This document shows, in pieces, positions 9,831 through 24,786 of a stretch of DNA of 64,000 nt. The stretch lies in NCBI RefSeq assembly GCF_003386095.1, contig NZ_QREG01000023.1, forward strand, positions 21,930 to 85,929, written 5' to 3'. The translations under genes were made by a program, and so were the position numbers. The notes beneath the pieces were generated by a model that had not been told where the DNA came from, did no database searches, and saw only the letters and a program-made list of their open reading frames with translations. Origin of the DNA: Marinoscillum furvescens DSM 4134. Its GTDB lineage: Bacteria > Bacteroidota > Bacteroidia > Cytophagales > Cyclobacteriaceae. Every line of letters begins with the position of its first letter. The first letter of the stretch is position 1.

Positions 9831-10771
9831 AATCTATCTATCGTCTTTTCTACGTTCTTCTTTATACGGTCTAAAATGTTTTCGGTGGTGTCTTTTATAA
9901 AAACCATTCCAGTTATTTTCTCAAAAAGTTCAATGTATCGCTCCGAAACAGAATTTACAAACTCTTCCGTCATTTCGGGGATTTGTTGCCCTTCTTTTCC
10001 CTGAAAACCATTGCTGATCAGCCATTGCCGAACAAATTCTTTTGAAAGTTGCTTTTGCCCTTCACCGCTTGCCTGACGTTTTTCATAACCTTCGGCATAA
10101 AAATATCTCGACGAATCTGGCGTATGCACTTCATCTATAAGCAATATTTCGCCATTATGTTTTCCAAATTCATATTTGGTATCCACCAAAATCAACCCCT
10201 GTTCGGCTGCTAGCTGAGTGCCTCGCTCGAAGAGTTTTACGGTGTATTCTTCAAGTTGCACATAGTCTGACTCACTCACCAACCCCTGGGCTAAGATTTC
10301 TTCTCGTGAAATGTCCTCATCATGCCCCTCATGAGCTTTGGTAGTAGGTGTTATGATAGGGGAAGGTAGCTTGTCATGCTCTTTGAGCCCATCGGGTAGA
10401 GGTACACCGCACAGGCTTCGTTTCCCGTCGCGGTATTCACGCCAGGCGTGACCGGTAAGGTAACCACGGATGACCATTTCCACAGGAAAGGCCTCGCATT
10501 TGATACCGATAGTTACATTAGGATCAGGAACTGTCAAAACCCAGTTCGGCACAATGTCTTTCGTTTTTTGCAGCATGGTAGCTGCTATTTGGTTTAGTAC
10601 CTGACCTTTAAAGGGAATAGGCTCTGGTAAGACTACATCAAAAGCCGATATCCGGTCTGATGCGATCATCAGAAGCTTATCGCCAAATGAATAAACGTCA
10701 CGTACTTTACCAACATATTTGTCGGTCTGCTTAGGGAATTCGAAATCTGTGTATTTGATGCCTTTGGACAT
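9827..10771 (-). CDS. purC: SAICAR synthetase (purine biosynthesis)
   Basis: A 314-residue phosphoribosylaminoimidazole-succinocarboxamide synthase, which condenses CAIR with aspartate using ATP. The motifs include [25 protein letters not shown] at the N-terminus, [17 protein letters not shown], and [11 protein letters not shown]. The length matches the longer eukaryote-like PurC form. I use the ATG at 10771; the open frame extends three codons to a TTG. It is the first gene of the purC-STAS-rnz-yhhQ cluster. Confidence 0.95.
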
Positions 10772-10831
10772 AGGGCGCAAAGATAGTGATCTGAATGGAA
10801 TAAAATTGACCTCTAAATTACAATACTCTGT

Positions 10832-12151
10832 TTAACCAGCGGTCAACTTTTCGGAGCTAATTACCCTGCCAGACTCATAGTTTTCTTTGAGGATCATCGT
10901 TTCCTTTCGATCGTAGTAGTACCACTCACCTGTGCGTTTGTTTCGCAGGTAGTTGCCTTCATATTCTTTTGCGCCGTTTTTGTGATACTTTACAAAAGGG
11001 CCTTGCAGCCGGTCGAGCTTCCAGGTTTCTTTCGTTTTTAGCTTTCCATTGGGGTAGTAGGTGGTAGCCTCACCCTGCTTGCGTCCATAAGCAAATGTAG
11101 TGCGCTCTACGATGGTGCCCTTCTGGTAAATTTCAGTCACCCCATGCAATTTCCCGTTCTGCCACGTTTGGACCTTTGATAGCCTGTTTTTATCATCATA
11201 AAATTTCCAGGTGCCATGCGGGAGTTCATTGAGGAGTTGTTTGCTGGCTACTATTTTGCCTTTTTCGCTGTATTCGGTGATACGCGCATCCATGCCTTTG
11301 TTGGAATACACCCCTTCAACCTTCACTTTACCATTCGCGTGGTACTCCAGGTTTTTGCCCACTCGATACCCGTTTTTATAGCTAAACTTTTTATGTAGGT
11401 CTCCATTGTCGAAATAGGCTATATAATCACCTTGCAGTGCGCCTTCTTTGTATTTTCCTTCTGACTTGAGTTGACCATTTTCATGAAAGTATTTCACAAA
11501 TCCTGAGCGTTTCCCACGCTCATTCAGCACTTCCATTTCCAGATTGCCAGAAGGGTAGTAGGTGCGGTATTCCCCGTCGAGCAGACCTCCTACATACTCG
11601 GCTTCCAGCATCACTATTCCTGATTCATAATATTTTTTGGTGGTGCCGTTTGGTTTGCCATCAGCGTATTCCACTTCTTGCTTTAGGTTGCCGTTCGGGT
11701 AGTATTCGGTTACCAGTCCATCAGGCTTGCCGTTTACAAACTGTGTGGAGCCACGGAGCTGTCCATTTTCATTGTATACTTTGAGCTCGCCTACAAGCGT
11801 ATCTTGCTGAAACATGGCCTCCTGCATCACAGTGCCGTCCGGAGCATATACTTTGGTCAGCCCTTCCTTCAGGTTGTTTACATAAGTGGTGACACGCTGC
11901 ACCGTTCCATTTTCGTAATAATTAGTAAAAGTGCCTTGCTTTTTCCCATCTTCAAAATGCCCTTTTACCAGCACTTCGCCAGAAGGACTAAACTTTTTAT
12001 AAGGTCCATGCACCCGACTAGAATCATTGTCTAATACCTGATAGGTTTCTTTTACCTGCCCATCCAGGTTTTCATAATACGTGGTTATGGGGGTTTGGCT
12101 TTGCGCCAAAATGGACATGAGAATAAATAGTGAACAAAGGCTGACTTTCAT
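10832..12151 (-). CDS. secreted MORN-type repeat protein (YwqK-like)
   Basis: A 439-residue protein. The start at 12151 gives a good signal peptide (MKVSLCSLFILMSILAQSQ). The upstream in-frame extension from 12244 is rejected because it would bury that signal. The body is about fifteen repeats of roughly 23 residues built on G-x-x-x-x-Y-Y-x-N-G-x-x-x-x-E, the MORN_2 pattern. Databases often label such proteins 'toxin-antitoxin system YwqK family antitoxin', but nothing here indicates a toxin. It is probably periplasmic or surface-exposed, with unknown function. Confidence 0.78.
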   Translation of the reverse strand: MKVSLCSLFILMSILAQSQTPITTYYENLDGQVKETYQVLDNDSSRVHGPYKKFSPSGEVLVKGHFEDGKKQGTFTNYYENGTVQRVTTYVNNLKEGLTKVYAPDGTVMQEAMFQQDTLVGELKVYNENGQLRGSTQFVNGKPDGLVTEYYPNGNLKQEVEYADGKPNGTTKKYYESGIVMLEAEYVGGLLDGEYRTYYPSGNLEMEVLNERGKRSGFVKYFHENGQLKSEGKYKEGALQGDYIAYFDNGDLHKKFSYKNGYRVGKNLEYHANGKVKVEGVYSNKGMDARITEYSEKGKIVASKQLLNELPHGTWKFYDDKNRLSKVQTWQNGKLHGVTEIYQKGTIVERTTFAYGRKQGEATTYYPNGKLKTKETWKLDRLQGPFVKYHKNGAKEYEGNYLRNKRTGEWYYYDRKETMILKENYESGRVISSEKLTAG

Positions 12152-12322
12152 ATCACAAAAAAAGAGAATGCTGAGCATGTAACGCAAATAGAAAAGATGA
12201 ATTGTAAAGTTCGGGTATTTAGAAGCAATACAGGTAGTTAACATCGTGTAATCAGAAATGATTTCCTGAAGAACATGGCATATCCTATGGCTAAGACTGC
12301 TCTAATTTACACCTTTGTAATT

Positions 12323-13207
12323 ATGGAAGCTAATCAATTGGAAAGTCAGGTTTTTATAACTGCAGAAATGGAACTTGGGGAGGGTCCGCTTTGGCATCCT
12401 GTGGAGAGCTGCTGGTACTGGGTGGATATCTATCAGGGCAAACTTCATAAGGCTGATGCTGCTGGAAATCACCTAAGTAGTTTTGCTTTTGATAAAAAAT
12501 TAGGTTTCGCGCTGCCAGCCAGCGAGGAACAGTTTGTTTGTGGGTTGGAGGATGGATTGGCAGTATTTAGTATGTCCACGGGGAAAACTTCTTATCTGGC
12601 CAATATCAATCATGAAGCAAACGGCAACAGATTTAACGATGGCAAAACTGACCCGACGGGTAGGGTATGGGGAGGTACTATGAATGTAGACGAAAGTACG
12701 CGCTATGGAAATTTGTACACCTGGGAACATCAAAAACTCAGGTCTCACCTAAGTCAGCTAGGTGTATCTAATGGACTGGGATGGTCACCGGATCATCGAA
12801 CTTTTTATCACATAGACTCACCAAGGCGCACCATCACTGCTTATGGTTTTGATGCCGTGTCTGGTAGTTTGGAAGAAGCATCCAATGTGATTCATGTACC
12901 GGAAAGCATGGGTTTTCCAGACGGGATGGCTGTGGATAATGAAGGCATGCTTTGGGTAGCGCATTGGGATGGGTATGCGGTAAGGTGCTGGGATCCTGAG
13001 TCTGGCAAAGTGCTACACGAAATTCAAGTGCCCGCTCCGAGAGTGACGTCTTGTGCTTTTGGTGGAGCCGATGGCAAAACACTCTTAATTACTACAGCGC
13101 GAACAGGCTTAAGTAAAGAAGAGCTGATGAAATATCCGCAAAGCGGAAGCTTGTTTGTGGCCCATCTCAATGTAGGTGGAATGCCCTGTACCCTGGCTAA
13201 GCACTAA
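12323..13207 (+). CDS. SMP-30/gluconolactonase family lactonase
   Basis: A 294-residue six-bladed beta-propeller hydrolase. The ATG at 12323 (MEANQLESQ) is preferred to one at 12275. Family motifs include GEGPLWHP (metal-binding Glu), NDGKTDPTGRVWGGTM (metal-binding Asn), GLGWSPD, and FPDGMAVDNEGMLWVAHWDG. These enzymes hydrolyse sugar lactones with a divalent metal. The downstream gene is a FucP-type sugar symporter, which supports a joint role in uptake and oxidation of a sugar or sugar acid. A TTTG-type -7 element (12310-12317) sits just before the start. Confidence 0.88.
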   Translation: MEANQLESQVFITAEMELGEGPLWHPVESCWYWVDIYQGKLHKADAAGNHLSSFAFDKKLGFALPASEEQFVCGLEDGLAVFSMSTGKTSYLANINHEANGNRFNDGKTDPTGRVWGGTMNVDESTRYGNLYTWEHQKLRSHLSQLGVSNGLGWSPDHRTFYHIDSPRRTITAYGFDAVSGSLEEASNVIHVPESMGFPDGMAVDNEGMLWVAHWDGYAVRCWDPESGKVLHEIQVPAPRVTSCAFGGADGKTLLITTARTGLSKEELMKYPQSGSLFVAHLNVGGMPCTLAKH

Positions 13208-13318
13208 AGCACACGTGTGAACGTCGAAATCTTTTCGTTTTTAATTTTATTTAAAATGCTTCGCGTAGCTTTAAACGGATTTTTAGTCTGTTAATATTTT
13301 TTTCCTAAACTAAACTAT

Positions 13319-14614
13319 ATGAAGTCAACATCTGATCCTGTGGTAGGACGTAGTGTGCTTTTACCTTTTATTCTGATCACTTCACTATTTGCCCTTTGGG
13401 GATTTGCCAATGCAGTTACGGATCCTATGGTTCAGGCATTTAAGAAAGTGCTCGAACTATCCAACTCTCAGGCTGCATGGGTGCAAATGGCTTTTTATGG
13501 AGGCTATTTTTGTATGGCATTACCTGCGGCATTGTTTGTAAGAAAGTTTTCTTATAAAACGGGGGTGCTAATAGGTCTGGCGCTATATGCTGGTGGTGCG
13601 CTGTTGTTTTATCCGGCAGCTACTTCAGAGCAATTTTGGTTTTTCTGTTTGGGCCTATACATTCTTACGTTTGGTTTGGCTTTTTTAGAAACTACAGCCA
13701 ATCCCTACATACTGGCAATGGGATCGCCTGAAACTGCCACTCGTAGGTTAAACCTTGCTCAGGCTTTCAATCCGCTGGGATTGATTTTGGGACTATTAGT
13801 AGCCCAACAATTCGTGTTGAAGAAGCTACAATCCGATAATATAGAAGACTATGCTTCTCTGGCTGAAGCTAAAAAAGCGCTGATAAGAACCAGTGATTTA
13901 ATGGTGATCCGTGATCCTTACGTGATGTTGGGCCTTGTGGTGCTGGGCATATTTGTGCTCATCCTGATCAATAAAATGCCTCAGGCTAAAGACAAAAATG
14001 GCATGCCTTCTTTAAGCAATACAATCGGAGCGCTTTTAAGCAGAAGGAAGTACAACTTAGGAGTGTTGGCGCAAGTGTTGTATGTAGGCGCTCAGATCAT
14101 GTGCTGGACATATATCTACCAATACGCTGAGGCCATTGGTATCAGTAGCGATATTGCAGCCAATTATCAGTTTGCTGCATTCTTATTGTTTTTAGTAGGA
14201 AGGGCAGTGGGTACTTATATGCTGCGCCTGATCAACTCTGGAAAGCTGCTTTTACTTTTTGCAATAGCTGGAGGCATCTGTACAGTGCTTACCATGGTGC
14301 TTTCGGGCGTTTCTGGCTTGTATGCACTGGTGGCTATATCCTTTTTTATGTCAGTAATGTTTCCTACAATCTATGGTATTGCTCTCGAAGGTCTTAGCGA
14401 GGAAGAGTCCAAAATCGGTGCTGCAGGGTTGGTAATGGCTATTGTAGGTGGTGCTCTGATGCCCAAGTTTCAAGGGATGTTGATTGATCTGGGAGGAGCA
14501 GGAGTAAGTGATATTACAATATTAGGAATGGCGGAAGTCAACTTTTCATTTATTCTACCTTTACTCTGTTTTGTAGGTATCGCATTATACGGATCAATTA
14601 CACAGCGTAAATAG
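13319..14614 (+). CDS. fucP: L-fucose:H+ symporter type MFS permease
   Basis: A 431-residue major facilitator with twelve membrane spans. FucP-family signatures are SLFALWGFANAVTDPM near the N-terminus, FYGGYFCMALPAA, and FLETTANPYILAMG; acidic and asparagine residues at the last of these line the sugar site in FucP. The family includes fucose, glucose/galactose and N-acetylglucosamine transporters, so the exact sugar is uncertain. The lactonase upstream and a strong terminator downstream define a two-gene unit, although the 111-bp gap could hold its own promoter. Confidence 0.88.
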   Translation: MKSTSDPVVGRSVLLPFILITSLFALWGFANAVTDPMVQAFKKVLELSNSQAAWVQMAFYGGYFCMALPAALFVRKFSYKTGVLIGLALYAGGALLFYPAATSEQFWFFCLGLYILTFGLAFLETTANPYILAMGSPETATRRLNLAQAFNPLGLILGLLVAQQFVLKKLQSDNIEDYASLAEAKKALIRTSDLMVIRDPYVMLGLVVLGIFVLILINKMPQAKDKNGMPSLSNTIGALLSRRKYNLGVLAQVLYVGAQIMCWTYIYQYAEAIGISSDIAANYQFAAFLLFLVGRAVGTYMLRLINSGKLLLLFAIAGGICTVLTMVLSGVSGLYALVAISFFMSVMFPTIYGIALEGLSEEESKIGAAGLVMAIVGGALMPKFQGMLIDLGGAGVSDITILGMAEVNFSFILPLLCFVGIALYGSITQRK

Positions 14615-14656
14615 GTATTGTTCTCCTTAATTTTCTGATAACTAATTAATCTTAAG

Positions 14657-14704
14657 AGTTGCTTTGTATCGTAGACCTATCTACCTGCAAAGCAACTTTT
14701 TTTA
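14657..14704 (+). terminator. rho-independent terminator after fucP
   Basis: A 10-bp perfect stem, AGTTGCTTTG (14657-14666) with CAAAGCAACT (14688-14697), is followed by eight T. The loop contains a second 5-bp stem, GTAGA/TCTAC (14671-14675/14680-14684). It lies 43 bases after the fucP stop. Confidence 0.9.
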
Positions 14705-14860
14705 TCTCCCGGCATTGCGGAGCCTTGTCTGCTGTCCATTTCAGGTCTCAACTGAGCTGCGTGTTGCAAACAATGAAGAGAATTTACACTTAGAACTAAG
14801 TTCTATCTTTTACCACTTGATATAGTCAGATTAAAATCCTCTTTTTGCACAAAAAAAAAC

Positions 14861-15451
14861 ATGCCCAATACGCGTTTATTACAGCAACTCGAATTCATTC
14901 GAGAAATTGATAAACTCAAATACATTTTTCGTAAGTCCAGGCTATTTGGCAGTGACCGTCATGAAAACGATGCGGAGCACAGCTGGCATTTGGCGATGAT
15001 GGCTGTAGTGCTTGAAGAGCATGCCATCGCTCCCGTTTCGCTTTTGCGAGTGATCAAGATGCTGCTCATTCATGACATAGTTGAAATAGACGCTGGGGAT
15101 ACCTTCTTGTATGACACCACCAAGGATCATAACAATACAGAAGAGGAACTAGTGGCCGCCAATCGCATTTTTGGGATCCTTCCTGAGGATCAGCGAGATG
15201 AGTTCATCAAGATCTGGCAGGAGTTCGAGGCAGGGGAGTCGGCAGATGCCCGCTTTGCTAAAGCCCTGGACCGACTAGAACCCGTGATGCAAAATGCCTC
15301 CAATGGAGGGGGAACCTGGCAGGAATTTGATGTGCCAAAAGAAAAGGTTCTTAATAAAATTCAAGGTATCAGTAGAGGTTCGGATACTTTATGGGCTTAT
15401 ACGCAACAGCTATTGGATAAGTGTGTAGCTGACGGATTGCTGAAAGCTTAA
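14861..15451 (+). CDS. HD-domain phosphohydrolase (HDDC2/YfbR-like)
   Basis: A 196-residue HD-superfamily protein. The metal-binding pattern is present: R-x-E-N-D-A-E-H-S-W-H around residues 32-42, HDIVEIDAGD near residue 70 and a later D (ALDRLEP). Members of this group (YfbR, HDDC2) dephosphorylate deoxynucleoside 5'-monophosphates. The substrate here is inferred. It is a single gene whose 3' end overlaps by four bases the stop of the convergent SRPBCC gene. Confidence 0.85.
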   Translation: MPNTRLLQQLEFIREIDKLKYIFRKSRLFGSDRHENDAEHSWHLAMMAVVLEEHAIAPVSLLRVIKMLLIHDIVEIDAGDTFLYDTTKDHNNTEEELVAANRIFGILPEDQRDEFIKIWQEFEAGESADARFAKALDRLEPVMQNASNGGGTWQEFDVPKEKVLNKIQGISRGSDTLWAYTQQLLDKCVADGLLKA

Positions 15452-15903
15452 GAATCCGCTGCGTATCTTGGGTTGCCTTCGGCAAAAGATTTGAAGTCTT
15501 CCATAAACTGCAAGCTTTGCTTCTTAAATGCCTTTTTTCCCATGAAAAAGGCCATAAACTTCATTAAACCACTAAATTCAAACTCTGTTTCACTGACCCA
15601 CCTCGTCTGATTTCCTTGATCGTAAAAATAGTTGCGCTGTATATTGAAAGCACCTTTGGTATCATAGGTGCCATGAAAAGCATCCGGCAAGCTGCGCTCA
15701 GTGATCGTTTCAATCATTTCCATCTCACGTTTACCCCATTTGTATTTGAGCCTTGAGGTGGCACCACGAGTTCCGGGCTCGCCATCCAGATGCTCGAACG
15801 AGATAAATCCCTTTTGCCAATACTTCATGTTGTCAGGGTTGTCAAACTTTTCGATGACCTTGTCTCTAGGTAAGTCGATAGTGATTTCCAGGTTATATTT
15901 CAT
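15448..15903 (-). CDS. SRPBCC-family protein
   Basis: A 151-residue START-like/polyketide-cyclase-type domain. It begins with the standard first strand (MKYNLEITIDLPRDKVIEKF), followed by DNPDNMKYWQKGF and a long C-terminal helix (KQSLQFMEDFKSFAEG). Such domains bind hydrophobic ligands in a deep cavity; the ligand is unknown. No signal peptide is visible. Its promoter must lie in the 126-bp gap before the tRNA-remnant array. Confidence 0.75.
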   Translation of the reverse strand: MKYNLEITIDLPRDKVIEKFDNPDNMKYWQKGFISFEHLDGEPGTRGATSRLKYKWGKREMEMIETITERSLPDAFHGTYDTKGAFNIQRNYFYDQGNQTRWVSETEFEFSGLMKFMAFFMGKKAFKKQSLQFMEDFKSFAEGNPRYAADS

Positions 15904-16031
15904 TTTTAGGTTAATGTGTTTAGAGTAAAGCTAATGGATTTGTAGGTTTTGAAGAAAATGGATACTGAGTAAACAGGTGGCGAAATTTAGGTGTTCAGGT
16001 TGAAGCCCCATTTTTAAGAACTCCTTTATTG

Positions 16032-16090
16032 CGGTATGGACAGGACTCGAATCGCAGCGGCGCACCGTCCGCGACTTCTTGCGTATCAGG
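16032..16090 (-). pseudogene. tRNA-Asp remnant 1
   Basis: The 3'-half remnant shares the acceptor 3' strand, T-loop and part of the anticodon arm with the intact genes. A 16-nt net insertion disrupts the T-stem. It carries ACAGGAC instead of ACGGGAC (shared with remnant 5) and TTCTTGCG in the anticodon arm. Its downstream terminator is truncated. Confidence 0.85.
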
Positions 16091-16203
16091 CCTGTTGAGT
16101 TTTTGAGATGTTTGTTGGAGTTTAAGAATGAAATGCTTGCTACTAGTGGAATAGGGTGGATTAGACACAAAAAAAGGAGGCTCATCTGAAAACTCCTTTA
16201 TTG

Positions 16204-16262
16204 CGGTATGGACGGGACTCGAATCGCAGCGGCGCACCGTCCGCGACTTCCTGGGTAACAGG
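16204..16262 (-). pseudogene. tRNA-Asp remnant 2
   Basis: Same structure as the other remnants, with CCTGGGTAACAGG in the anticodon arm. It is followed on the minus strand by a hairpin terminator at 16169-16199. Confidence 0.85.
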
Positions 16263-16375
16263 CCTATTGAGTTTTTGAGATGTTTGTTGGAGTTTAAGAA
16301 TGAAATGCTTGCTACTAGTGGAATAGGGTGGATTAGACACAAAAAAAGGAGCCTCATCTGAGAACTCCTTCCTTG

Positions 16376-16434
16376 CGGTATGGACGGGACTCGAATCGCA
16401 GCGGCGCACCGTCCGCGACTTCCTGCGTATCAGG
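16376..16434 (-). pseudogene. tRNA-Asp remnant 3
   Basis: Same structure, with CCTGCGTATCAGG in the anticodon arm. A terminator follows at about 16341-16371. Confidence 0.85.
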
Positions 16435-16547
16435 CCTGTTGAGTTTTTGAGATGTTTGTTGGAGTTTAAGAATGAAATGCTTGCTACTAGTGCAATAGGA
16501 TGGGTCTGATACAAAAAAAGGAGCCTCATCTGAGAACTCCTTCTTTG

Positions 16548-16606
16548 CGGTATGGACGGGACTCGAATCGCAGCGGCGCACCGTCCGCGACTTCCTGCGT
16601 AAAAGG
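16548..16606 (-). pseudogene. tRNA-Asp remnant 4
   Basis: Same structure, with GCGTAAAAGG in the anticodon arm. The spacer to its left carries the GTCTGATAC variant shared only with the one left of remnant 7. Confidence 0.85.
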
Positions 16607-16719
16607 CCTATTGAGTTGATGAGCTGTTTGTTGGAGTTTAGGAATGAAATGCTTGCTACTAGTGGAATAGGGTGGATTAGACACAAAAAAAGGAGCCTCA
16701 TCTGAAAACTCCTTTATTG

Positions 16720-16778
16720 CGGTATGGACAGGACTCGAATCGCAGCGGCGCACCGTCCGCGACTTCCTGCGTATCAGG
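16720..16778 (-). pseudogene. tRNA-Asp remnant 5
   Basis: Same structure. It shares the ACAGGAC variant with remnant 1 and CGTATCAGG with remnants 1, 3 and 6. Confidence 0.85.
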
Positions 16779-16891
16779 CCTGTTGAGTTTTTGAGATGTT
16801 TGTTGCGGGTTAAGAATCAAATGCTTGCTACTAGTGGAATAGGGTGGATTAGACACAAAAAAAGGAGTCTCATCTGAGAACTCCTTCCTTG

Positions 16892-16950
16892 CGGTATGGA
16901 CGGGACTCGAATCGCAGCGGCGCACCGTCCGCGACCTCCTGCGTATCAGG
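16892..16950 (-). pseudogene. tRNA-Asp remnant 6
   Basis: Same structure. It keeps GCGACCTCCTGCG, as in the intact tRNAs, where the other remnants have GCGACTTC. Confidence 0.85.
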
Positions 16951-17058
16951 CCTATTGAGTTGATGAGGTGTTTGTTGGAGTTAAAGAATGATTGCTACCA
17001 GTGGAATGGGATGGGTCTGATACAAAAAAAGGAGCCTCACCTGAGAATACCTTCCTTG

Positions 17059-17117
17059 CGGTATGGACGGGACTCGAATCGCAGCGGCGCACCGTCCGCG
17101 ACTTCCTGCGTGACAGA
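17059..17117 (-). pseudogene. tRNA-Asp remnant 7
   Basis: The remnant next to the intact genes and the least decayed. It keeps GCGTGACAG of the anticodon loop, but has the same T-stem insertion and lacks the D-arm and 5' acceptor strand. Confidence 0.85.
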
Positions 17118-17197
17118 CCTATTGAGTTGATAAGAGGTTTGTTGGAGTTTAATAACGAAATGATATTGCTATTAGTGGAATAGGGTGGAATAGACAC

Positions 17198-17227
17198 AAA
17201 AAAAGGAGCCTCATCTGAGAACTCCTT
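17198..17227 (-). terminator. terminator after tRNA-Asp copy at 17233
   Basis: On the minus strand AAGGAG (17222-17227) pairs with CTCCTT (17203-17208), with an inner CTC/GAG pairing and a run of seven T. The same hairpin recurs in the remnant array. Confidence 0.85.
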
Positions 17228-17232
17228 CTTTG

Positions 17233-17306
17233 CGGTATGGACGGGACTCGAACCCGCGACCTCCTGCGTGACAGGCAGGCATTCTAACCAACTGAACTAC
17301 CACACC
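17233..17306 (-). tRNA. tRNA-Asp(GTC), second copy
   Basis: A 74-nt cloverleaf on the minus strand. The acceptor GGTGTGG pairs with CCATACC (one G-U), the discriminator is G73, the anticodon arm CCTGC-CTGTCAC-GCAGG gives GTC, and the T-arm GCGGG-TTCGAGT-CCCGT is intact. CCA is not encoded. Body identical to the copy at 17400. It is followed by its own terminator. Confidence 0.97.
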
Positions 17307-17364
17307 AGTGCAATTATCATTTTGATCAAAGCCTAACACGAAATGAATTGAATCGTGAGTAGGT

Positions 17365-17398
17365 AAAAAAAGGAGCCTCAATGATGAAAGCTCCTTTT
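17365..17398 (-). terminator. terminator between the two tRNA-Asp genes
   Basis: On the minus strand AAAAGGAGC (17390-17398) pairs with GCTCCTTTT (17368-17376) and continues into a T-run. It begins only two bases after the tRNA 3' end. Confidence 0.88.
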
Positions 17399-17399
17399 G

Positions 17400-17473
17400 C
17401 GGTATGGACGGGACTCGAACCCGCGACCTCCTGCGTGACAGGCAGGCATTCTAACCAACTGAACTACCACACC
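17400..17473 (-). tRNA. tRNA-Asp(GTC), promoter-proximal copy
   Basis: A 74-nt tRNA with anticodon GTC, G73 and no encoded CCA; all arms pair. It is the first gene read from the promoter at 17532-17562. Queuosine at the wobble base is expected for a GUC anticodon, which fits the YhhQ transporter in this window. Confidence 0.97.
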
Positions 17474-17531
17474 TTTGATCTTTTTGGGACGCTTACACTC
17501 GTTTGTGTGCGTGTTTCCCTCAATTGCGATG

Positions 17532-17562
17532 CAAAACTATGTGCTTATTTGATTAAATCCAA
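17532..17562 (-). promoter_or_regulatory. promoter of the tRNA-Asp genes
   Basis: On the minus strand TTGG (17559-17562), a 19-base spacer and TAGTTTTG (17532-17539) fit the Bacteroidota -33/-7 consensus TTTG-N19-TAnnTTTG with a slightly weak -33. Transcription would start near 17526, about 50 bases before the first tRNA. Confidence 0.65.
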
Positions 17563-17631
17563 TAGGCCAATTCAATTATTTTTATCCACATTTTCGATAT
17601 CGTTAAAACTGTCGAAAAGGGGATTTCTTTC

Positions 17632-17639
17632 TACATTTG
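17632..17639 (+). promoter_or_regulatory. -7 element of accA
   Basis: TACATTTG matches the Bacteroidota TAnnTTTG -7 box exactly, 20 bases before the accA ATG. No good -33 TTTG lies at the usual distance. It supports the start at 17660 over the long upstream frame. Confidence 0.55.
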
Positions 17640-17659
17640 TCCCAGTAAAAAATCAAAGC

Positions 17660-18604
17660 ATGCACTTAGAGTTCGAAAAGCCAATAGTAGAATTAGAAAG
17701 CAAGCTGGCAGATATGAAACAGCTAGCCCAGCAGAGTGATGTAGACGTAACAGATGCCATCAAAAAGCTGGAGACAAAGATTACAACCCTTAAGAAAGAT
17801 ACCTTTACCAATCTTACGAGGTGGCAGCGAGTGCAGCTGTCCCGTCATCCTGAGCGCCCGTACACCCTGGACTATATCTATGAGATCTCTGATGATTTTG
17901 TAGAGTTACACGGTGATCGTACTGTAAAAGACGATAAAGCCATGGTGGGAGGTTTTGCTACCATAGATGGTGAGTCGGTAATGATCATTGGACAACAAAA
18001 GGGGAGAAATACCAAGCAGCGTCAAGAACGTAATTTTGGTATGGCCAACCCTGAAGGGTACCGAAAAGCTTTGCGCCTCATGAAGTTGGCTGAGAAGTTT
18101 AACAAACCCATCATTACGCTGGTGGACACTCCGGGTGCTTATCCAGGGTTAGAAGCGGAAGAACGCGGACAGGGAGAAGCCATCGCTCGAAATCTCAAAG
18201 AAATGATGATGCTCAAAGTACCAGTGGTGAGTGTGATCATTGGAGAAGGAGCTTCTGGTGGAGCATTGGGGATTGCCATCGCAGACAAAGTTTTAATGAT
18301 GGAAAATACCTGGTATTCGGTGATATCGCCTGAGTCGTGCTCGTCGATACTGTGGAGAAGCTGGGATTATAAAGAACAGGCTGCTGAAGCACTCAAGCTT
18401 ACCGCAAAGGATATGCTGGAGCACAAACTGATTGATGGTATTATCAATGAGCCGCTTGGAGGTGCGCATTCAGATATGAAAGCGGCTGCTTCTCAGCTGA
18501 AAAGCGATGTGCTAAAACACATCAAAGCCTTGAAGAAACTTTCAGAAGATAAGCGTATACAACAGAGAATAGATAAATTCTCTGATATGGGAGCTTATAA
18601 ATAA
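17660..18604 (+). CDS. accA: acetyl-CoA carboxylase carboxyltransferase subunit alpha
   Basis: A 314-residue AccA, partner of AccD in transferring the carboxyl group from biotin to acetyl-CoA for fatty-acid synthesis. Motifs: [29 protein letters not shown] near residue 155 and [13 protein letters not shown] near residue 195, the oxyanion region. The frame runs upstream to 17381 through the tRNA-Asp gene, an artefact; [13 protein letters not shown] is the normal AccA N-terminus. Patatin and acyltransferase genes follow closely, forming a small lipid-metabolism cluster. Confidence 0.96.
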
Positions 18605-18610
18605 TTGACA

Positions 18611-19393
18611 ATGAAAATTGGTTTAGTGCTTTCGGGAGGTGGTGCCAGAGGAATCGCTCATCTTGGTATTATGGAGGCACTTCTAGAATCTGGAGTACGT
18701 TTTAGTGTGGTGTCCGGATCGAGCGCCGGAGCTCTTGCAGGAGCCTTATACTGTGCTGGTCACTCACCTAGAGAAATTTGCCAGATTATTGAAAAAACCA
18801 ATTTTTACAGAGCTTTCAGGCCTTCTTTTAACAGCAGAAGCCTGCTAAACATAGAAAGAGCTTCTGGGGAGTTGAGTAAATACTTCCCGGAAGATTCTTT
18901 TGCATCTCTCAAAATCCCTCTTCGGGTAACGACCACAGATATTTCCAAAGGCAAGGTAAAGGTTTACAAGCGAGGACAGCTCATACGCCCAGTGTTAGCT
19001 TCTTGTTGTATTCCAGTGGTTTTTGACCCTGTTCGTATCGGAAAACGCACACTTGTAGATGGTGGTATACTGGATAACCTTCCATATAAGCCAATCAAAA
19101 AGGAGTGCGATAAAATCATCGCTTTACATTGCAACCCTATAGATAAGGGGTATCGTCCGGGTAACTGGAGAGACCTGATGGAACGCTCCATGATGCTTAC
19201 GGTGACACAGTATGTGCACAGTAAGAAAAAAAACTATGATTTGTTTTTAGAGCCGCCAGGAGTGAGTAGATATAAGGTGTTTGATTTTAAGAAGGCTCAG
19301 GAAATTTTTGATTTTGGATATGAGTATGCCCAAAAAGAGATAGCTTCAGGTGCGTTAGAAAAGATCGGACTCCATGAAAAAAGCGTTCTTTAG
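18611..19393 (+). CDS. patatin-like phospholipase (RssA-type)
   Basis: A 260-residue patatin-fold serine acyl hydrolase. The oxyanion loop is G9-G10-G11-A-R-G14, the nucleophile elbow G36-S-S38-A-G40 and the catalytic Asp is in the VDGG motif near residue 150. The ATG at 18611 is used; an in-frame TTG two codons earlier directly abuts the accA stop. There is no signal peptide, so it probably acts on membrane lipids from the cytoplasm. Its 3' end overlaps the acyltransferase by 20 bases, implying co-expression and possibly deacylation-reacylation. Confidence 0.88.
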   Translation: MKIGLVLSGGGARGIAHLGIMEALLESGVRFSVVSGSSAGALAGALYCAGHSPREICQIIEKTNFYRAFRPSFNSRSLLNIERASGELSKYFPEDSFASLKIPLRVTTTDISKGKVKVYKRGQLIRPVLASCCIPVVFDPVRIGKRTLVDGGILDNLPYKPIKKECDKIIALHCNPIDKGYRPGNWRDLMERSMMLTVTQYVHSKKKNYDLFLEPPGVSRYKVFDFKKAQEIFDFGYEYAQKEIASGALEKIGLHEKSVL

Positions 19394-19922
19394 TGTATGT
19401 TTTAGGCTTACGGGCTGGAGGGTAGTAGGGCAAAGACCTGTGCACTTAAAAAAGTATGTGCTCATAGTAGCCCCACACACTAGCAATTGGGATTTTTTTG
19501 TGGGTGTGGCAGCCAGGAGTATTTCAGGGCTGAAGAGTGACTTCCTGGCAAAGGACTCCTTGTTCAAAATTCCACTTGTAGGTTGGTTTTTACGGAAGGT
19601 TGGAGGGCATCCTGTAGACCGATCACGTAAAATGAATATGGTGGACCAGGTAGTGGAGCTGTTTCATAAACATGAAGAGTTTGTGATCACTATAACCCCA
19701 GAGGGTACCAGATCTTATAACCCGAATTGGAAAACCGGGTTTTATAGAATAGCTGACAAAGCCAGGGTGCCAATAGTACTTGTAGGGTTTGACTATGAAA
19801 AGCGAACAGTGGAATACCGAAAGCCTTTTATTCCTACAGGGGATTTGGAAAAGGAACTAGAAGAAATCAAAGCTTACTTTCGTACCGTGAAAGGAAAGCA
19901 TCCGGAAAAAGGAGTGAGGTAA
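19374..19922 (+). CDS. PlsC-like 1-acylglycerol-phosphate acyltransferase
   Basis: A 182-residue short acyltransferase with the catalytic HTSNWD (HX4D) motif near residues 35-40 and the glycerol-phosphate-binding PEGTR motif near residue 110. It transfers acyl groups from ACP or CoA to a lysolipid. At 182 residues it is shorter than canonical PlsC (about 240) and resembles the compact variants common in Bacteroidota. It overlaps the patatin gene and ends before a bidirectional terminator. Confidence 0.85.
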   Translation: MKKAFFSVCFRLTGWRVVGQRPVHLKKYVLIVAPHTSNWDFFVGVAARSISGLKSDFLAKDSLFKIPLVGWFLRKVGGHPVDRSRKMNMVDQVVELFHKHEEFVITITPEGTRSYNPNWKTGFYRIADKARVPIVLVGFDYEKRTVEYRKPFIPTGDLEKELEEIKAYFRTVKGKHPEKGVR

Positions 19923-19944
19923 TCGGAGCGGATGCCTTGCAAAT

Positions 19945-19972
19945 AAAAAAGCCCCGATCAACGGGGCTTTTT
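19945..19972. terminator. bidirectional rho-independent terminator
   Basis: AAAAAAGCCCCG (19945-19956) and CGGGGCTTTTT (19962-19972) form a GC-rich stem with an ATCAA loop and a T-run in both directions. It lies between convergent genes and can end both transcripts. Confidence 0.92.
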
Positions 19973-19973
19973 G

Positions 19974-20753
19974 TTATTTCTTCTTTGTGGTTCGTTTTGT
20001 TCGGCGCTTTGGCTTCACTTCTTCCACAATTTCATCTTCTACGTCTGCGAGAATACGTCCACAGTGCTCGCATACGATGATCTTTTTCTTTTCTCTGATC
20101 TCAGCTTGCATTTGTGGAGGCACCACGTTGAAACAGCCACCACAAGCACCTCTTTTTACAGGTACCACAGCAAGTCCGTTTCGCATATTGTTTCTTACTT
20201 TGTCGTAAGACTTCAATAAGCGATCTTCTACTTGCTTAGCAGCTTTTTCACGATCTTTTAACAGCTTTTGTTCATCAGCTTCAGACTCCTGAGTGATGGT
20301 TTCCAATTCAGCCTTTTTCGAATCAAGATCTTTGCCTCTTTCAGTAAGAATGCCTTCAGTTTCGGCGATCTCCTCCTTCTTTGCATCAATCTTCACAAAA
20401 GACTCCTTGATTCTTTTTTCAAGAATCTGAATTTCCAGCTGCTGTAGCTCAATTTCTTTGCTGATCGCATCATATTCGCGGTTATTGCGAACATTCATTT
20501 GCTGCTCTTCATATTTTTTGATGAGCTTCTCAGCGTCTTTTATAGCAGTACGGTTGCTTGAGATATTGTCTTCCAAGTCGGCCAATTCCTGCTTTTGCTT
20601 CTCAATCCTCGTCTGGTAACCAGCAATCTCATCTTCAAGGTCCATTACCTCATCAGGCAAAGCACCTCTTACTTTGATTAATTCGTCACGTTCTGAATCG
20701 ATGGATTGTAATTTTACGAGGTTTTCGAGCTTTTTCGCTACAGTATTTTCCAT
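19974..20753 (-). CDS. coiled-coil protein with C-terminal zinc ribbon
   Basis: A 259-residue protein. Residues 1-190 are a nearly unbroken heptad coiled coil rich in E, K and Q. Two CxxC pairs (CGGC and CEHC) near residues 205 and 230 form a C4 zinc ribbon, and the tail is basic (KPKRRTKRTTKKK). This matches the zf-RING_7/CT398-like family, suspected to bind nucleic acid, with no settled function. It lies six bases downstream of the Nif3-like gene, a pairing common in Bacteroidota. Confidence 0.88.
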   Translation of the reverse strand: MENTVAKKLENLVKLQSIDSERDELIKVRGALPDEVMDLEDEIAGYQTRIEKQKQELADLEDNISSNRTAIKDAEKLIKKYEEQQMNVRNNREYDAISKEIELQQLEIQILEKRIKESFVKIDAKKEEIAETEGILTERGKDLDSKKAELETITQESEADEQKLLKDREKAAKQVEDRLLKSYDKVRNNMRNGLAVVPVKRGACGGCFNVVPPQMQAEIREKKKIIVCEHCGRILADVEDEIVEEVKPKRRTKRTTKKK

Positions 20754-20759
20754 GCAGTA

Positions 20760-21854
20760 TTACAAATAATTGATAGGATTCGTTTGTACGTCCGATAAAC
20801 GGAGTGCAATATTAGTGAATTTTTCGCTTAATATATCATAAAGCAAATCCTTTGTGAATTGCTCACTTTCGTAGTGTCCAATATCCGCAATGATGGTCTG
20901 TCCATCGGCTTCAAAAAACTCGTGGTACTTAAAATCCCCTGTGATAAATACATCTGCACCCTGACGAATAGCGCTACTAAGCAGGAAGCTTCCTGCTCCA
21001 CCGCAGAGAGCCACTTTTGATACCTTGTTACGGGTAATGGCTGTGTGACGAATGCATTTGGTCTGCATTTTTTCCTTTAACCATGCCAAAAACGCAGCAG
21101 TGTCCATAGGATTTTCAAGTACACCGATCATTCCAGACCCAACATCCTGGTGCTTGTTCGAGAGCGACGTGAGGTAGTATGCTACTTCCTCATAAGGATG
21201 TGCCTGTCGTAAAGATGCCAGTATTTTGCCCGACAAGTGGTTAGGAAAAATGACCTCCACCCGGTCTTCAGTTACGGTTTCATCTACATGCTGAGCACCG
21301 ATATGTGGATTGGTGTGTGCTCCAGGTCTAAAAGTACCAGTGCCGGCTACACGAAAACTACAGTGGTCGTAATCGCCTATACTTCCAGCACCAGCAGCAT
21401 AGAGTGCATCCAACACTTCCTGAGTGTTATCTTTAGGTACAAAGGTGGTTAGCTTAGTCAGTAGGCCTGATTTGGGGCTCAAAGTGCGTACCTGCTTTAG
21501 GCCGAGGCGTTCTGCAATCCTACGATTGACGCCCAGGTGATAGTTGTCCAGATTTGTGTGGATAGCATAAATCGCTATGCCATTTTGGATAGCTTTGATA
21601 ATGCATCGTTCTACCCAGTGATTGCCCGTGAGGCTTTTCAACCCTTTGAAAATAAGCGGGTGATGGGCGATGATTAAGTTGTCACCATTTTGAATAGCTT
21701 CTGCGATTACCTCTTCTGTAACGTCCAGGGTAAGGCTTATTCCTTTAACTTCTGAATTTGGATTACCAACTAAAAGCCCACAGTTGTCATAAGACTCCTG
21801 ATATTCCAGAGGCACAAGTCCTTCCAGGTAATTGGTTATATCTTTGATTTGCAT
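20760..21854 (-). CDS. Nif3-like dinuclear metal centre protein
   Basis: A 364-residue Nif3/YbgI family protein, often annotated GTP cyclohydrolase I type 2 homologue. Metal-binding motifs are YDNCGLLVG and IIAHHPLIFKG in the first domain and ITGDFKYHEF and DIGHYESEQF in the last. The middle insertion (about residues 130-230) is the CutA/PII-like domain of long-form members. The start at 21854 (MQIKDITNYL) fits the family; the frame extends upstream only through lpxK coding sequence. The biochemical role is unsettled. Confidence 0.9.
   Translation of the reverse strand: MQIKDITNYLEGLVPLEYQESYDNCGLLVGNPNSEVKGISLTLDVTEEVIAEAIQNGDNLIIAHHPLIFKGLKSLTGNHWVERCIIKAIQNGIAIYAIHTNLDNYHLGVNRRIAERLGLKQVRTLSPKSGLLTKLTTFVPKDNTQEVLDALYAAGAGSIGDYDHCSFRVAGTGTFRPGAHTNPHIGAQHVDETVTEDRVEVIFPNHLSGKILASLRQAHPYEEVAYYLTSLSNKHQDVGSGMIGVLENPMDTAAFLAWLKEKMQTKCIRHTAITRNKVSKVALCGGAGSFLLSSAIRQGADVFITGDFKYHEFFEADGQTIIADIGHYESEQFTKDLLYDILSEKFTNIALRLSDVQTNPINYL
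21839..21846 (+). promoter_or_regulatory. -7 element of lpxK inside the nif3-like gene
   Basis: TATCTTTG matches TAnnTTTG exactly, 18 bases before the lpxK ATG, and lies in the first codons of the divergent Nif3-like gene. No clear -33 is present. Confidence 0.5.
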
Positions 21855-21864
21855 AGATTCAAAT

Positions 21865-22905
21865 ATGATGTATTGGTGGCAAATAATTCTATTTCCTTTT
21901 GCTTTGCTTTTCGATGTGATCACGAGGCTCCGTAACCGTTTGTATGATCGGGGCATTCGGCAAAGCACAAAATTTGATACAAATGTAGTGTCGATAGGAA
22001 ATCTATCCATAGGAGGCACGGGTAAAACCCCTATGCTCAACTATCTCATCGATTATTTTCATGCGAAAGACTGGAAAGTGGCAACGCTTAGTCGTGGATA
22101 TGGGCGCAATACTAGAGGCTTTAGGCTTGCAAGCACTGAGGATAATGCCGATAGTATAGGTGACGAGCCATTTATGTACTACACCCGCTACAAAGGCGTA
22201 GTGCCAGTAGCGGTAGGGGAAGAGCGTGACTTAGCGTTGTCCGAATTGTACTTACATGAGCCTGACACTCATGTGGTCCTGCTAGACGATGCGTTTCAAC
22301 ACAGGCGCTTGCTGCCATCTGCTAGCATCATGCTCACTACTTATCAGCATCCTTTTATGACGGACTTTCTTTTGCCAGCGGGTAGGTTGCGAGAAGCCAG
22401 AAGTGGTGCTCGACGAGCAGATATCATTATTGTCACCAAATGTCCGGAGAATATTTCTGGGGCTGAACAGGTCAAATACCGTGAGCAAATCCGATCATAC
22501 AGTGATGCAGAGGTCTTTTTTATGACCACTGTTTATCACCAACCAAAACCCATGTTTGAAAACGACATTCCACTAAAGCGAAATGTAGTGGGGATTTCAG
22601 GGTTAGCGCATTCGGGCTCATTTGAAAGGCATCTACAAAAACACTTTGGAGTAAAACTCACTCACCATTACCGCGATCACTATCGCTATAAAAATCAGGA
22701 CGTCAAAGACATTATTCAAGAGCTCGACGATGACACCAGCCTCGTTACCACAGAAAAGGATATGGTAAAACTTAGACATTTTGATGCACTGCAGCGTTTC
22801 TCCTGTTTTTATATCCCTATCGAAATGAAATTTATAAAGGATGAAGCGTTATTTCTTTCTACAATGGAGTCTAAGTTAAAAAACTATGTGGATGACCCGA
22901 ATTGA
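21865..22905 (+). CDS. lpxK: tetraacyldisaccharide 4'-kinase
   Basis: A 346-residue LpxK, which phosphorylates the 4' position of the lipid A precursor at the inner membrane. An N-terminal hydrophobic helix is followed by the P-loop GGTGKTP (50-56), then SRGYGR, GDEP, LLDDAFQHR and TTEKD, all family hallmarks. There are two candidate ATGs (21865 and 21868). Its presence shows that the host makes lipopolysaccharide. The start is only 10 bases from the divergent Nif3-like start. Confidence 0.95.
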   Translation: MMYWWQIILFPFALLFDVITRLRNRLYDRGIRQSTKFDTNVVSIGNLSIGGTGKTPMLNYLIDYFHAKDWKVATLSRGYGRNTRGFRLASTEDNADSIGDEPFMYYTRYKGVVPVAVGEERDLALSELYLHEPDTHVVLLDDAFQHRRLLPSASIMLTTYQHPFMTDFLLPAGRLREARSGARRADIIIVTKCPENISGAEQVKYREQIRSYSDAEVFFMTTVYHQPKPMFENDIPLKRNVVGISGLAHSGSFERHLQKHFGVKLTHHYRDHYRYKNQDVKDIIQELDDDTSLVTTEKDMVKLRHFDALQRFSCFYIPIEMKFIKDEALFLSTMESKLKNYVDDPN

Positions 22906-22908
22906 TTA

Positions 22909-22916
22909 TACTTTTG
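22909..22916 (+). promoter_or_regulatory. -7 element before the large porin gene
   Basis: TACTTTTG matches TAnnTTTG exactly and ends four bases before the GTG start, so the transcript would be nearly leaderless if this element is used. Confidence 0.45.
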
Positions 22917-22920
22917 CCAC

Positions 22921-24786
22921 GTGAAAAGAATCCTGACATGTATTATAGCTGCCATGAGCACGGTAGCATTGTTTGCTCAGATCACAGATGATTCTACCAA
23001 GCTGGTGTACAATGCCAATACCACTAGGATCATTCTAGAGTCAGATTTAAAAAACAATATTGAATCCGAAAGACATCCTGACACCACTCTTTACGAGTTG
23101 GAAAAATTTACTCCATTGGATCAGGCGGATTTTAAATATCAAGACCTTGGCAATGTAGGAACTGCGATGTTCCCTATTTTCTATCCTGTAGCAGACGAGA
23201 TCGGACGCACAAGTGGGCTTTCGGCCTACGACTATTATATGGTGTCTCCGGAAAGCTTCAAATACTATAACAGCAAGTCTCCATTTATGGACCTCATGGT
23301 GGTGTTTGGTGGAAAAGGAAGGTCAGTTGTGGATTATTCATTTAGTAGAAATGTAAATGAAAACTGGAATTTTGGATTTGACATCTATCGCATCACTTCT
23401 GACAAACAAATAGGTAAAAGTGGACAGCAAGACCGAAATGTTGTAGGGACTGTAATAGACTTATACACCTACTATCAGCATCCGGAAAAGCCCTATGAAG
23501 CAATGGTACATGTAGCCAACATGGGTTTTAACATTGAAGAAACAGGAGGTATATATGTAGATGATATTTCAAATGCATCCAGTGTAGATTTATTTGAATA
23601 TCAGGATTCGGATATTCAACTCAGCGAAGCACGATCTTTTGAAGACCGCTTTCATTTCCACCTATACCATCAGTACAACTGGACCAAACAGCTTCAGTTT
23701 TATCATCAGCTTGATATCAAAAATCAGGAGTCGGGCTATCAGGATTTTAGAGATGGGGGCGGCACTTACAATACCTATACTGATTATTATGATCAATTTT
23801 TGCTGGGGGTAGACAGTACCTACAGACAAATTAAGTGGAGTGAAGTAAGTAATGAAGCAGGAGTAAAAGGAGACCTGGCCAATCTATTTTACCGGCTTTA
23901 CCTAAAACGTCGGGATTTGAATATGGATGCGATCTATGAAGATCCCACAGACAAATTCAGCGAAATGTTTTTGGGAGGCTACACCCGGTTCAACTGGCGA
24001 GACAAGTTTAATGTGGAAGCGCAGGCCGAACTGATGCAGTCGGGTGAGTATAAGCTAATAGGAAACCTCAACTCCGATTTGATTTTTGGCTCCTATAAAT
24101 CCTTGCGCCTGAAACCTTCAGTGTTCAGTGATAGATACTTTGGCAATCATCAGGACTGGGACAATTCGTTTGCTTCAGCATTTACCAATGAGATTACTGG
24201 TGGTATACAGCTAGATCTCAAATGGCTGACCATCAGACCAAAAGGACGACTTTTGTCTCGAGATAAATTTATATACTATGACGAAAATCGCACCGTACGC
24301 CAAAGTGATGAGGTGGCCATAATGGCATCAATCGGTGGTGATTTCAACCTCAAGTTGATTACCAATAAAGAATATAATGAATCGATACACCTTGAAAATG
24401 AAGCCTATTTCACCAAAGTAAGTGGCAACGGTGCACAGTACATGCCTGTGCCAGAGTGGTTTTATAATGGAAGGCTTTTTTGGAGAGGGTTTTGGTTTAA
24501 CAACACGATGGGCGTGGAAGTAGGGGTAAACCTCCATGCAAAAAGCCAATACTTTGCTCCTGCATATGCTCCAGAAATCCAGCAGTTTTATCTGCAGGAT
24601 GAGTTTCGCATCGAAAACTTCTACACCGCTGACATCTTTTGGAGTATGCAGGTCAACAACGTACGGGCATTTGTGAGATGGACCAACTTTAATCAAACCG
24701 GATTCACGGGGTATTTTATCACCCCATATTACCCAGGGCAAAGCCGAACTCTGGATTTTGGTGTGCGCTGGCTCTTTTACGACTAG
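22921..24786 (+). CDS. Bacteroidota putative porin (Porin_10 type)
   Basis: A 621-residue outer-membrane beta-barrel with a GTG start and signal peptide (cleavage after LFA-Q near residue 20). The barrel shows alternating aromatic/polar strands and ends in the aromatic terminal strand FGVRWLFYD, the Bam recognition pattern. Conserved pieces such as LGNVGTAMFP and YDYYMVSPESFKYYNSKSPF match the 'putative porin' family widespread in Bacteroidota. The solute is unknown. miaE follows five bases after its stop. Confidence 0.82.
   Translation: MKRILTCIIAAMSTVALFAQITDDSTKLVYNANTTRIILESDLKNNIESERHPDTTLYELEKFTPLDQADFKYQDLGNVGTAMFPIFYPVADEIGRTSGLSAYDYYMVSPESFKYYNSKSPFMDLMVVFGGKGRSVVDYSFSRNVNENWNFGFDIYRITSDKQIGKSGQQDRNVVGTVIDLYTYYQHPEKPYEAMVHVANMGFNIEETGGIYVDDISNASSVDLFEYQDSDIQLSEARSFEDRFHFHLYHQYNWTKQLQFYHQLDIKNQESGYQDFRDGGGTYNTYTDYYDQFLLGVDSTYRQIKWSEVSNEAGVKGDLANLFYRLYLKRRDLNMDAIYEDPTDKFSEMFLGGYTRFNWRDKFNVEAQAELMQSGEYKLIGNLNSDLIFGSYKSLRLKPSVFSDRYFGNHQDWDNSFASAFTNEITGGIQLDLKWLTIRPKGRLLSRDKFIYYDENRTVRQSDEVAIMASIGGDFNLKLITNKEYNESIHLENEAYFTKVSGNGAQYMPVPEWFYNGRLFWRGFWFNNTMGVEVGVNLHAKSQYFAPAYAPEIQQFYLQDEFRIENFYTADIFWSMQVNNVRAFVRWTNFNQTGFTGYFITPYYPGQSRTLDFGVRWLFYD

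What the first reader, a model, noticed from the sequence alone, without database searches (positions are those of the whole stretch)
16014..17473. Seven-copy tandem array of disrupted tRNA-Asp 3' halves, each with its own terminator, next to two intact tRNA-Asp genes
Seven units, mostly exactly 172 bp apart, each hold the 3' half of tRNA-Asp with the same 16-nt net insertion destroying the T-stem, followed by a hairpin terminator. The 31-bp GC-rich core is identical in all copies while anticodon arms and spacers vary. That is unexpected for freely decaying repeats; it fits either recent amplification with gene conversion or selection on the core. Readthrough from the tRNA promoter could yield tRNA-like decoy RNAs that engage RNase Z, RNase P or CCA-adding enzyme.
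Basis: partly seen in the sequence, partly recalled or inferred. Interest (0 to 1): 0.85.

Follow-up and report, generated by a model that had tools for sequence, protein, structure and literature searches.

The report
Tandem tRNA copies split by hairpins
Beside its aspartate tRNA genes this bacterium carries seven tandem broken copies of the tRNA's end, each split at the same loop by a short GC-rich insert whose close variants split copies of other tRNAs in this and related genomes, likely the trace of mobile hairpin DNA and repeated local amplification at tRNA genes.

Summary
The array is real: seven copies of positions ~31-75 of tRNA-Asp plus its terminator, minus strand, 167 or 172 bp apart, next to two intact tRNA-Asp genes. 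The invariant core is 33 nt, not 31: a T-arm interrupted by a 17-nt GC-rich module. RNA decoys are unsupported: the units have no promoter motif, lie behind terminators and lack the 5' acceptor strand; the array is missing at the locus in the four congeners where the locus can be seen.

It is not unique. In the same genome 15 of 34 distinct tRNAs have same-strand partial copies nearby (0 of 34 in two controls); of 12 with downstream copies, 11 are broken at the T-arm. Close variants of the module interrupt T-loops of copies of seven tRNA species in five genera; others lie away from tRNAs. In other genera tRNA-Asp copies are linked to a small GIY-YIG nuclease gene, mostly with a palindrome in the anticodon loop. 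E. coli's rtT repeats at tyrT show a similar T-loop-split layout.

Best explanation: a mobile GC-rich hairpin entered a duplicated tRNA 3' end and recombination amplified it. A GIY-YIG trigger is inference; no trace of one lies here. New variant of a known, unexplained kind.

The parts
17532..17562 (-). Promoter-like motif TTG-N20-TAGTTTTG upstream of the intact tRNA-Asp genes
   Evidence: regex scan of 15900-17700, only match there; 9 matches in the whole window, both strands; consensus recalled
17399..17473 (-). Intact tRNA-Asp (GTC), outer copy
17232..17306 (-). Intact tRNA-Asp (GTC), inner copy, identical to the outer one
17058..17116 (-). Split copy 1: tRNA 33-53 + module + 55-75; the only copy that keeps GTC
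16891..16951 (-). Split copy 2
16719..16779 (-). Split copy 3
16547..16607 (-). Split copy 4
16375..16435 (-). Split copy 5
16203..16263 (-). Split copy 6
16031..16091 (-). Split copy 7, outermost; its hairpin has no T run
   Evidence: 5' limit by analogy with the other copies
17079..17095 (-). 17-nt GC-rich module in the T-arm of copy 1; identical in the other six copies at 16912-16928, 16740-16756, 16568-16584, 16396-16412, 16224-16240, 16052-16068
17070..17102 (-). 33-nt core identical in all seven copies (copy 1 shown)
16017..17252 (-). Whole tandem array as delimited by Tandem Repeats Finder (its last bases run into the inner intact tRNA)

Best explanation
The array is seven tandem copies of the 3' part of the neighbouring tRNA-Asp gene with its terminator, each interrupted in the T-arm by the same 17-nt GC-rich module, and it likely arose when a mobile hairpin module entered one duplicated copy and recombination between copies then amplified it. 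Shown: the anatomy; exchange of sequence between units; close variants of the module in T-loops of other tRNAs' copies and also away from tRNAs; the same architecture at other tRNAs of this genome. Inferred: that the module moves as a hairpin, that it entered before amplification, and that breaks at tRNA genes start the process. One candidate source of breaks is the small GIY-YIG nucleases that sit next to tRNA-Asp in relatives, working as SegB does in phage T6. The units probably make little RNA and have no function of their own.
For: Lineage-specific and mosaic: the loci of four congeners (G001, G002, G003, G005) show no array; 27 of 66 site pairs incompatible. Same architecture elsewhere in the genome: 15 of 34 distinct tRNAs have same-strand partial copies within 2 kb (or to the contig end), against 0 of 34 with shuffled and 0 of 34 with swapped queries; of 12 with downstream copies 11 have a fragment end at the T-stem 5' strand or T-loop. 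Module variants: CGGTTCGCCGKTGCGATTCGA (<=1 mismatch) lies at 25 places in 12 of 196 family genomes, reversed pattern 0 in 196; by my reading 20 of 25 are T-loops of recognisable tRNA copies, seven species, five genera. A second insert family splits T-loops of Thr, Arg and a tRNA-like gene: 21 of 22 places in this genome lie in tRNA copies, reversed control 0. GIY-YIG ORFs occur at 12 of 73 family tRNA-Asp loci (5 of 5 ORFs tested pass the Pfam cut-off). SegB, a GIY-YIG nuclease, drives tandem amplification of a phage tRNA locus (PMC13096335; passages and one section read).
Against: The pattern itself ends in TTCGA, a T-loop sequence, so it favours T-loops. The looser pattern without it (ACGGTNCGCCGNTGCG, six genomes of the genus) found 26 places: 7 in this array and 19 elsewhere, of which only 3 have a tRNA gene within about 1.5 kb; so preference for tRNA copies is not shown for this module. 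The exact variant of this array (ACGGTGCGCCGCTGCG) was seen only here. No GIY-YIG trace in the array or window. Module conservation within arrays is inconsistent. No empty and filled site of one copy was found, and no enzyme for the module was identified. A third insert, identical between Met copies here and (reverse complement) Asp copies of Ekhidna, is genome-wide no commoner than its reversed control (11 against 12 matches).
Confidence: 0.45

Rival explanations
1. Functional small RNAs: read-through from the tRNA promoter yields unit RNAs that act as decoys or regulators, as was proposed for E. coli rtT RNA (recalled).
For: 33-nt invariant core; the module is less variable than both flanks in this array and in the C13 and rtT arrays; rttR is annotated as a small RNA in K-12.
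Against: No promoter motif in the units; terminators in front of every unit; no array at the locus in the four congeners where it can be seen; the module is not less variable than both flanks in Phe and Thr.
Confidence: 0.16
2. Plain neutral tandem duplication: slippage or unequal crossing-over made the copies, and the insert is a chance mutation of the founder copy.
For: Tandem duplication with exchange explains the spacing and the mosaic sites; intact tRNA-Asp is itself multicopy in many of the family genomes listed.
Against: Related inserts recur in T-loops of other tRNAs and genera, and fragment ends fall at the T-arm in 11 of 12 tRNAs; a private chance mutation would not recur.
Confidence: 0.22
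3. Scars of integrative elements that use the tRNA 3' half as attachment site: each unit is a remnant attachment site.
For: The T-loop and 3' end of tRNA genes are classic integrase sites (recalled).
Against: Each copy carries its own terminator and the anticodon-arm part in line, so a simple attachment scar does not fit; no integrase-like ORF recognised by eye among ORFs of 10000-24000 (no family search); a 23-nt piece of the core is not in viral contigs.
Confidence: 0.07
4. Degenerate GIY-YIG homing-element array: each unit once carried a nuclease gene, as in G099 and G006, and lost it.
For: GIY-YIG ORFs sit directly after tRNA-Asp in relatives and are repeated with the unit; a congener, G003, has one followed by a tRNA-Asp 3' end.
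Against: No similarity to the GIY-YIG profile in six frames of the array; the insert here is in the T-arm, whereas GIY-linked copies mostly carry a palindrome in the anticodon loop, with one T-arm case, L206.
Confidence: 0.1

Closest known systems
E. coli rtT repeats at tyrTV (rttR, tpr; NC_000913 1285900-1287600)
   Same: 178-bp x 3.1 tandem units downstream of duplicated tRNAs; each unit ends with the tRNA 3' end, and tRNA-like sequence is interrupted at the T-loop by a hairpin-rich insert.
   Different: Insert is ~64 nt, not 17; the 5' tRNA part is a weak match (12 nt, E 0.067); an inverted T-arm fragment is present; annotated as an RNA and a small protein gene. Published history of rtT is recalled, not read.
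SegB-driven segmental amplification of tRNA loci in phage T6 (PMC13096335; passages and one section read)
   Same: A GIY-YIG nuclease next to tRNA genes; tandem repeats of tRNA-containing segments; homologous recombination.
   Different: Shown in a phage with full-length tRNA copies under selection; here the copies are broken, chromosomal, and the unit has no nuclease gene.
Mobile GC clusters of yeast mitochondria (PMC4478555) and hairpin elements of sponge mitochondria (PMC2800124); passages of both read
   Same: Very short GC-rich or hairpin-forming modules, dispersed and lineage-specific.
   Different: Bacterial chromosome; many copies sit inside broken tRNA copies; movement and target duplication not shown.
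REP elements (PMC3733652, PMC12306157; passages read)
   Same: Short bacterial palindromic repeats.
   Different: REPs of the main families carry GTAG or CGTC tags; the passages seen describe no insertion into loops of tRNA gene copies. PMC12306157 lists rttR among REP-containing small RNAs. No tag or RAYT test was run here.

Membership tests
rtT-type tRNA-linked repeats | Tandem units downstream of a tRNA, each holding that tRNA's 3' end | tested here: met
   E. coli compared
rtT-type tRNA-linked repeats | Insert at the T-loop between tRNA-derived parts | tested here: met
   window; in E. coli itself the 5' part is a weak match (12 nt, E 0.067)
rtT-type tRNA-linked repeats | Processed RNA released from the tRNA transcript | not testable with these tools
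   no RNA data
GIY-YIG (SegB-like) amplification | GIY-YIG gene in or beside the amplified unit | tested here: not met
   none in the array or window; met at 12 of 73 family tRNA-Asp loci, a non-random set
Mobile GC cluster / hairpin element | Short GC-rich module at many unlinked places | tested here: met
   25 and 26 places, reversed control 0, for close variants of this module
Mobile GC cluster / hairpin element | Empty and filled sites, target-site duplication | tested here: inconclusive
   congener loci that were seen lack the copies themselves, so no empty site to compare
REP element | GTAG or CGTC tag and associated RAYT transposase | not tested
   no search for the tag or for RAYT was run
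tRNA attachment-site scar | Integrase gene nearby | tested here: inconclusive
   none recognised by eye among ORFs of 10000-24000; no family search

The most novel reading that the evidence does not exclude
Bacterial chromosomes host a class of tRNA-parasitic mobile DNA: autonomous units carry a small GIY-YIG nuclease plus a tRNA copy whose target loop is blocked by a hairpin, and non-autonomous derivatives, including this array and E. coli's rtT repeats, are hairpin-split tRNA tails that amplify in tandem beside the tRNA.
Probability: 0.25. Interest if true: 0.87.

Novelty: new variant of a known kind. Interest (0 to 1): 0.67.

Why it matters
The rtT repeats of E. coli have stood as an unexplained oddity (recalled). 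A similar T-loop-split architecture at many tRNAs of one genome, with related inserts across tRNA species and genera and nuclease genes beside tRNA-Asp in some relatives, turns an oddity into a class. It makes the question testable: do GIY-YIG nucleases cut tRNA genes, do split copies resist cutting, and do breaks at tRNA genes create tandem copies in bacterial chromosomes as SegB does in phage?

Tried and rejected
Exact pieces of the core in genome contigs and viral contigs: nothing (records of the window's own genome may be left out there). Module + TTCGA, no mismatch, in 395 Bacteroidota genomes: only this genome matched, but the sample held just eight other genomes of the family. Ekhidna's unit in 196 family genomes: 28 had some match at E <= 0.1, full-length only in G166, which has the Ekhidna lutea array. 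Rfam: only the two intact tRNAs pass gathering scores; weaker hits (SpF41_sRNA, mascRNA) fall on the intact tRNAs. Third insert (CGGCACGCGTAGTG): identical between Met copies here and, reverse-complemented, Asp copies of Ekhidna, but 11 matches in 5 of 196 genomes against 12 for the reversed pattern, and 5 of the 11 have no tRNA nearby. The swapped-query control in the family set was not clean: 39 of 97 tRNAs hit, 16 of 97 with swapped queries. The 73 family tRNA-Asp loci are not random: the first 20 were chosen partly for many BLAST matches, and loci were taken from a capped list. Of 25 named accA loci with an intact tRNA-Asp, 7 had any fragment match, some short or far off. Paper searches listed no description of the phenomenon (listings only, except the five papers whose passages were read); the library lacks most subscription journals.

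Full report
WHAT IS THERE. The window holds two identical tRNA-Asp genes on the minus strand (17399-17473 and 17232-17306), divergent from an ORF that I read as accA and used as the query. Downstream of them lie seven partial copies in tandem (TRF 16017-17252, 172 bp x 7.2). Units are mosaics: 27 of 66 pairs of informative sites show all four combinations, so the copies exchange sequence. The copy nearest the intact genes keeps the GTC anticodon; the others do not.

WHERE IT STANDS AMONG RELATIVES. It shares a family with G166, which holds the Ekhidna lutea array (NCBI lineage of Ekhidna). In five held congeners a search with the unit finds only short pieces of tRNA-Asp or, in G004, a short module-like piece near tRNA-Val. 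The tRNA-Asp loci of G001, G002, G003 and G005 were read and have no such array (G003 is on two contigs); in G004 no intact tRNA-Asp was found, so that locus was not seen. Ekhidna lutea has its own array at the same place: 98 bp x 3.5, tRNA 3' part with a 17-nt insert after TTCGA, net +16. G002 has 5' halves with a palindrome in the D-loop and a 3' end remnant; G003 has a GIY-YIG ORF followed by a tRNA-Asp 3' end.

A GENOME-WIDE PATTERN. I fetched regions around all 36 tRNA places that RF00005 listed in this genome; ARAGORN genes there, 34 distinct. Of these, 15 have same-strand partial copies of themselves within 2 kb or to the contig end; shuffled and swapped queries gave 0 of 34 each. Of the 12 with downstream copies, 11 have a fragment end at the T-stem 5' strand or T-loop; the twelfth, Ala, stops at position 46, and Arg-acg rests on one 14-nt match. 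The five with upstream copies have first fragments that end at positions 18-33. Tandem repeats by TRF are seen at Phe (105 bp), Thr (121 bp), Arg-tct (255 bp), Leu-cag (115 bp), Lys (115 bp, 1.9 copies) and, upstream, Met (170 bp). In 73 family tRNA-Asp loci (not a random sample) 27 have partial copies.

THE INSERTS RECUR. In this genome the Thr, Arg-tct and C13 tRNA-like arrays share TTCTGCCGCAGGCATTCC at the T-loop: 22 places with up to two mismatches, 21 of them in tRNA copies, reversed pattern 0; five congeners have 0 or 1. Ser-tga has CGGTTCGCCGTTGCGA before TTCGA, close to the module of the window's array (ACGGTGCGCCGCTGCGA). That pattern with TTCGA, one mismatch allowed, occurs at 25 places in 12 of 196 family genomes, the reversed pattern at none. 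Reading the contexts, I count 20 of 25 in T-loops of recognisable copies of Asp, Thr, Arg, Ser, Phe, Val and Met in five genera, 3 elsewhere in a similar non-tRNA context, and 2 unclear. The pattern contains the T-loop sequence TTCGA, so this count favours T-loops. A form without it, ACGGTNCGCCGNTGCG, has 26 places in 5 of the 6 genomes of the genus (control 0): 7 are this array, 4 others in this genome are not at tRNAs, and of 15 in congeners 3 have a tRNA gene within about 1.5 kb. So the module belongs to a dispersed family that also sits in tRNA copies; a preference of this module for T-loops is not shown, whereas the second insert family is nearly confined to tRNA copies. The exact variant of the window's array was seen only in this array.

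GIY-YIG LINK. A profile built from GIY-YIG ORFs of the genus finds ORFs at 12 of 73 family tRNA-Asp loci, in 11 of them downstream on the tRNA's strand; in 80 accA loci (925 kb) it finds 2, one beside tRNA-Asp. Five of five such ORFs tested pass the Pfam GIY-YIG cut-off. In 9 of the 11 downstream loci the ORF is followed by or runs into a tRNA-Asp copy whose anticodon loop is replaced by TCCCGA-N-TCGGGA, and L016 has an imperfect version; in L206 that palindrome replaces the T-arm; L184 shows no copy. The palindrome occurs 83 times in those 73 loci (76 within 1 kb of a tRNA; tandem arrays inflate this) and 4 times in the accA loci. In G099 and G006 the nuclease unit itself is repeated. In this genome a broken GIY-YIG ORF lies just downstream of tRNA-Ser-gga. 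None lies in the window or array.

MECHANISM. Shown: tandem copies with their terminators, exchange between copies, recurring inserts at loops of tRNA copies. Inferred: insertion of a mobile hairpin, amplification by recombination, and breaks at tRNA genes as trigger. SegB shows that a GIY-YIG nuclease can do the last step in a phage (PMC13096335, passages and one section); for this array it is an analogy. RNA function is disfavoured: the sole Bacteroidetes-type promoter motif is at 17562-17532, upstream of the intact genes, sigma-70-like sites are absent (0 found, 2.0 expected), and terminators intervene.

KNOWN KIND. E. coli tyrTV carries 178 bp x 3.1 repeats, annotated in part as rttR and tpr. 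Aligning a unit to tRNA-Tyr gives positions 67-85 exactly and, 64 nt upstream of that, AAGGTTCGACTC against positions 59-70 (E 0.067), so the unit also looks split at the T-loop. That 5' match is short and the reading is mine. Within arrays the insert is less variable than both flanks here, in C13 and in rtT, slightly in G032, not in Phe or Thr, and Leu has two copies only; in all but the window array the units were picked by matching the insert.

VERDICT. A real, non-random feature and one instance of a broad class; new variant of a known, unexplained kind.

Noticed in passing
L274 (G000:C13:35500-47500), about 3010-3140 and 4905-5030: Two tRNA-like genes with GTC in the anticodon position by my reading, a very long variable arm and encoded CCA; not called by ARAGORN or listed by RF00005; with 14 hairpin-insert places along 5.3 kb.
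   Followed up: partly
G000 contigs C6, C7, C9, C37, C39: Five contigs of the assembly begin within about 600 bp of a tRNA gene, as if assembly stopped at such arrays.
   Followed up: no
L206 (G171) 2700-3000: GIY-YIG ORF followed by a tRNA-Asp 3' end whose T-arm is replaced by a TCCCGAT..ATCGGGA palindrome, a bridge between the nuclease type and the T-loop type.
   Followed up: partly
L275 about 4440-4670 (G000:C1): Broken GIY-YIG ORF directly downstream of tRNA-Ser-gga in this genome.
   Followed up: partly
L289, L290, L291 (G007, G166, G039): The module sits in a similar non-tRNA context (TTTGA-module-TTCGTTT) in three genera.
   Followed up: no
window 45784-45828 and 63734-63768: Two short tandem repeats (21 bp, 12 bp) away from the array.
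   Followed up: no
L224 1202-2001 (G000:C15): 186-bp repeats upstream of a tRNA-Met in which no fragment of that tRNA was found.
   Followed up: no
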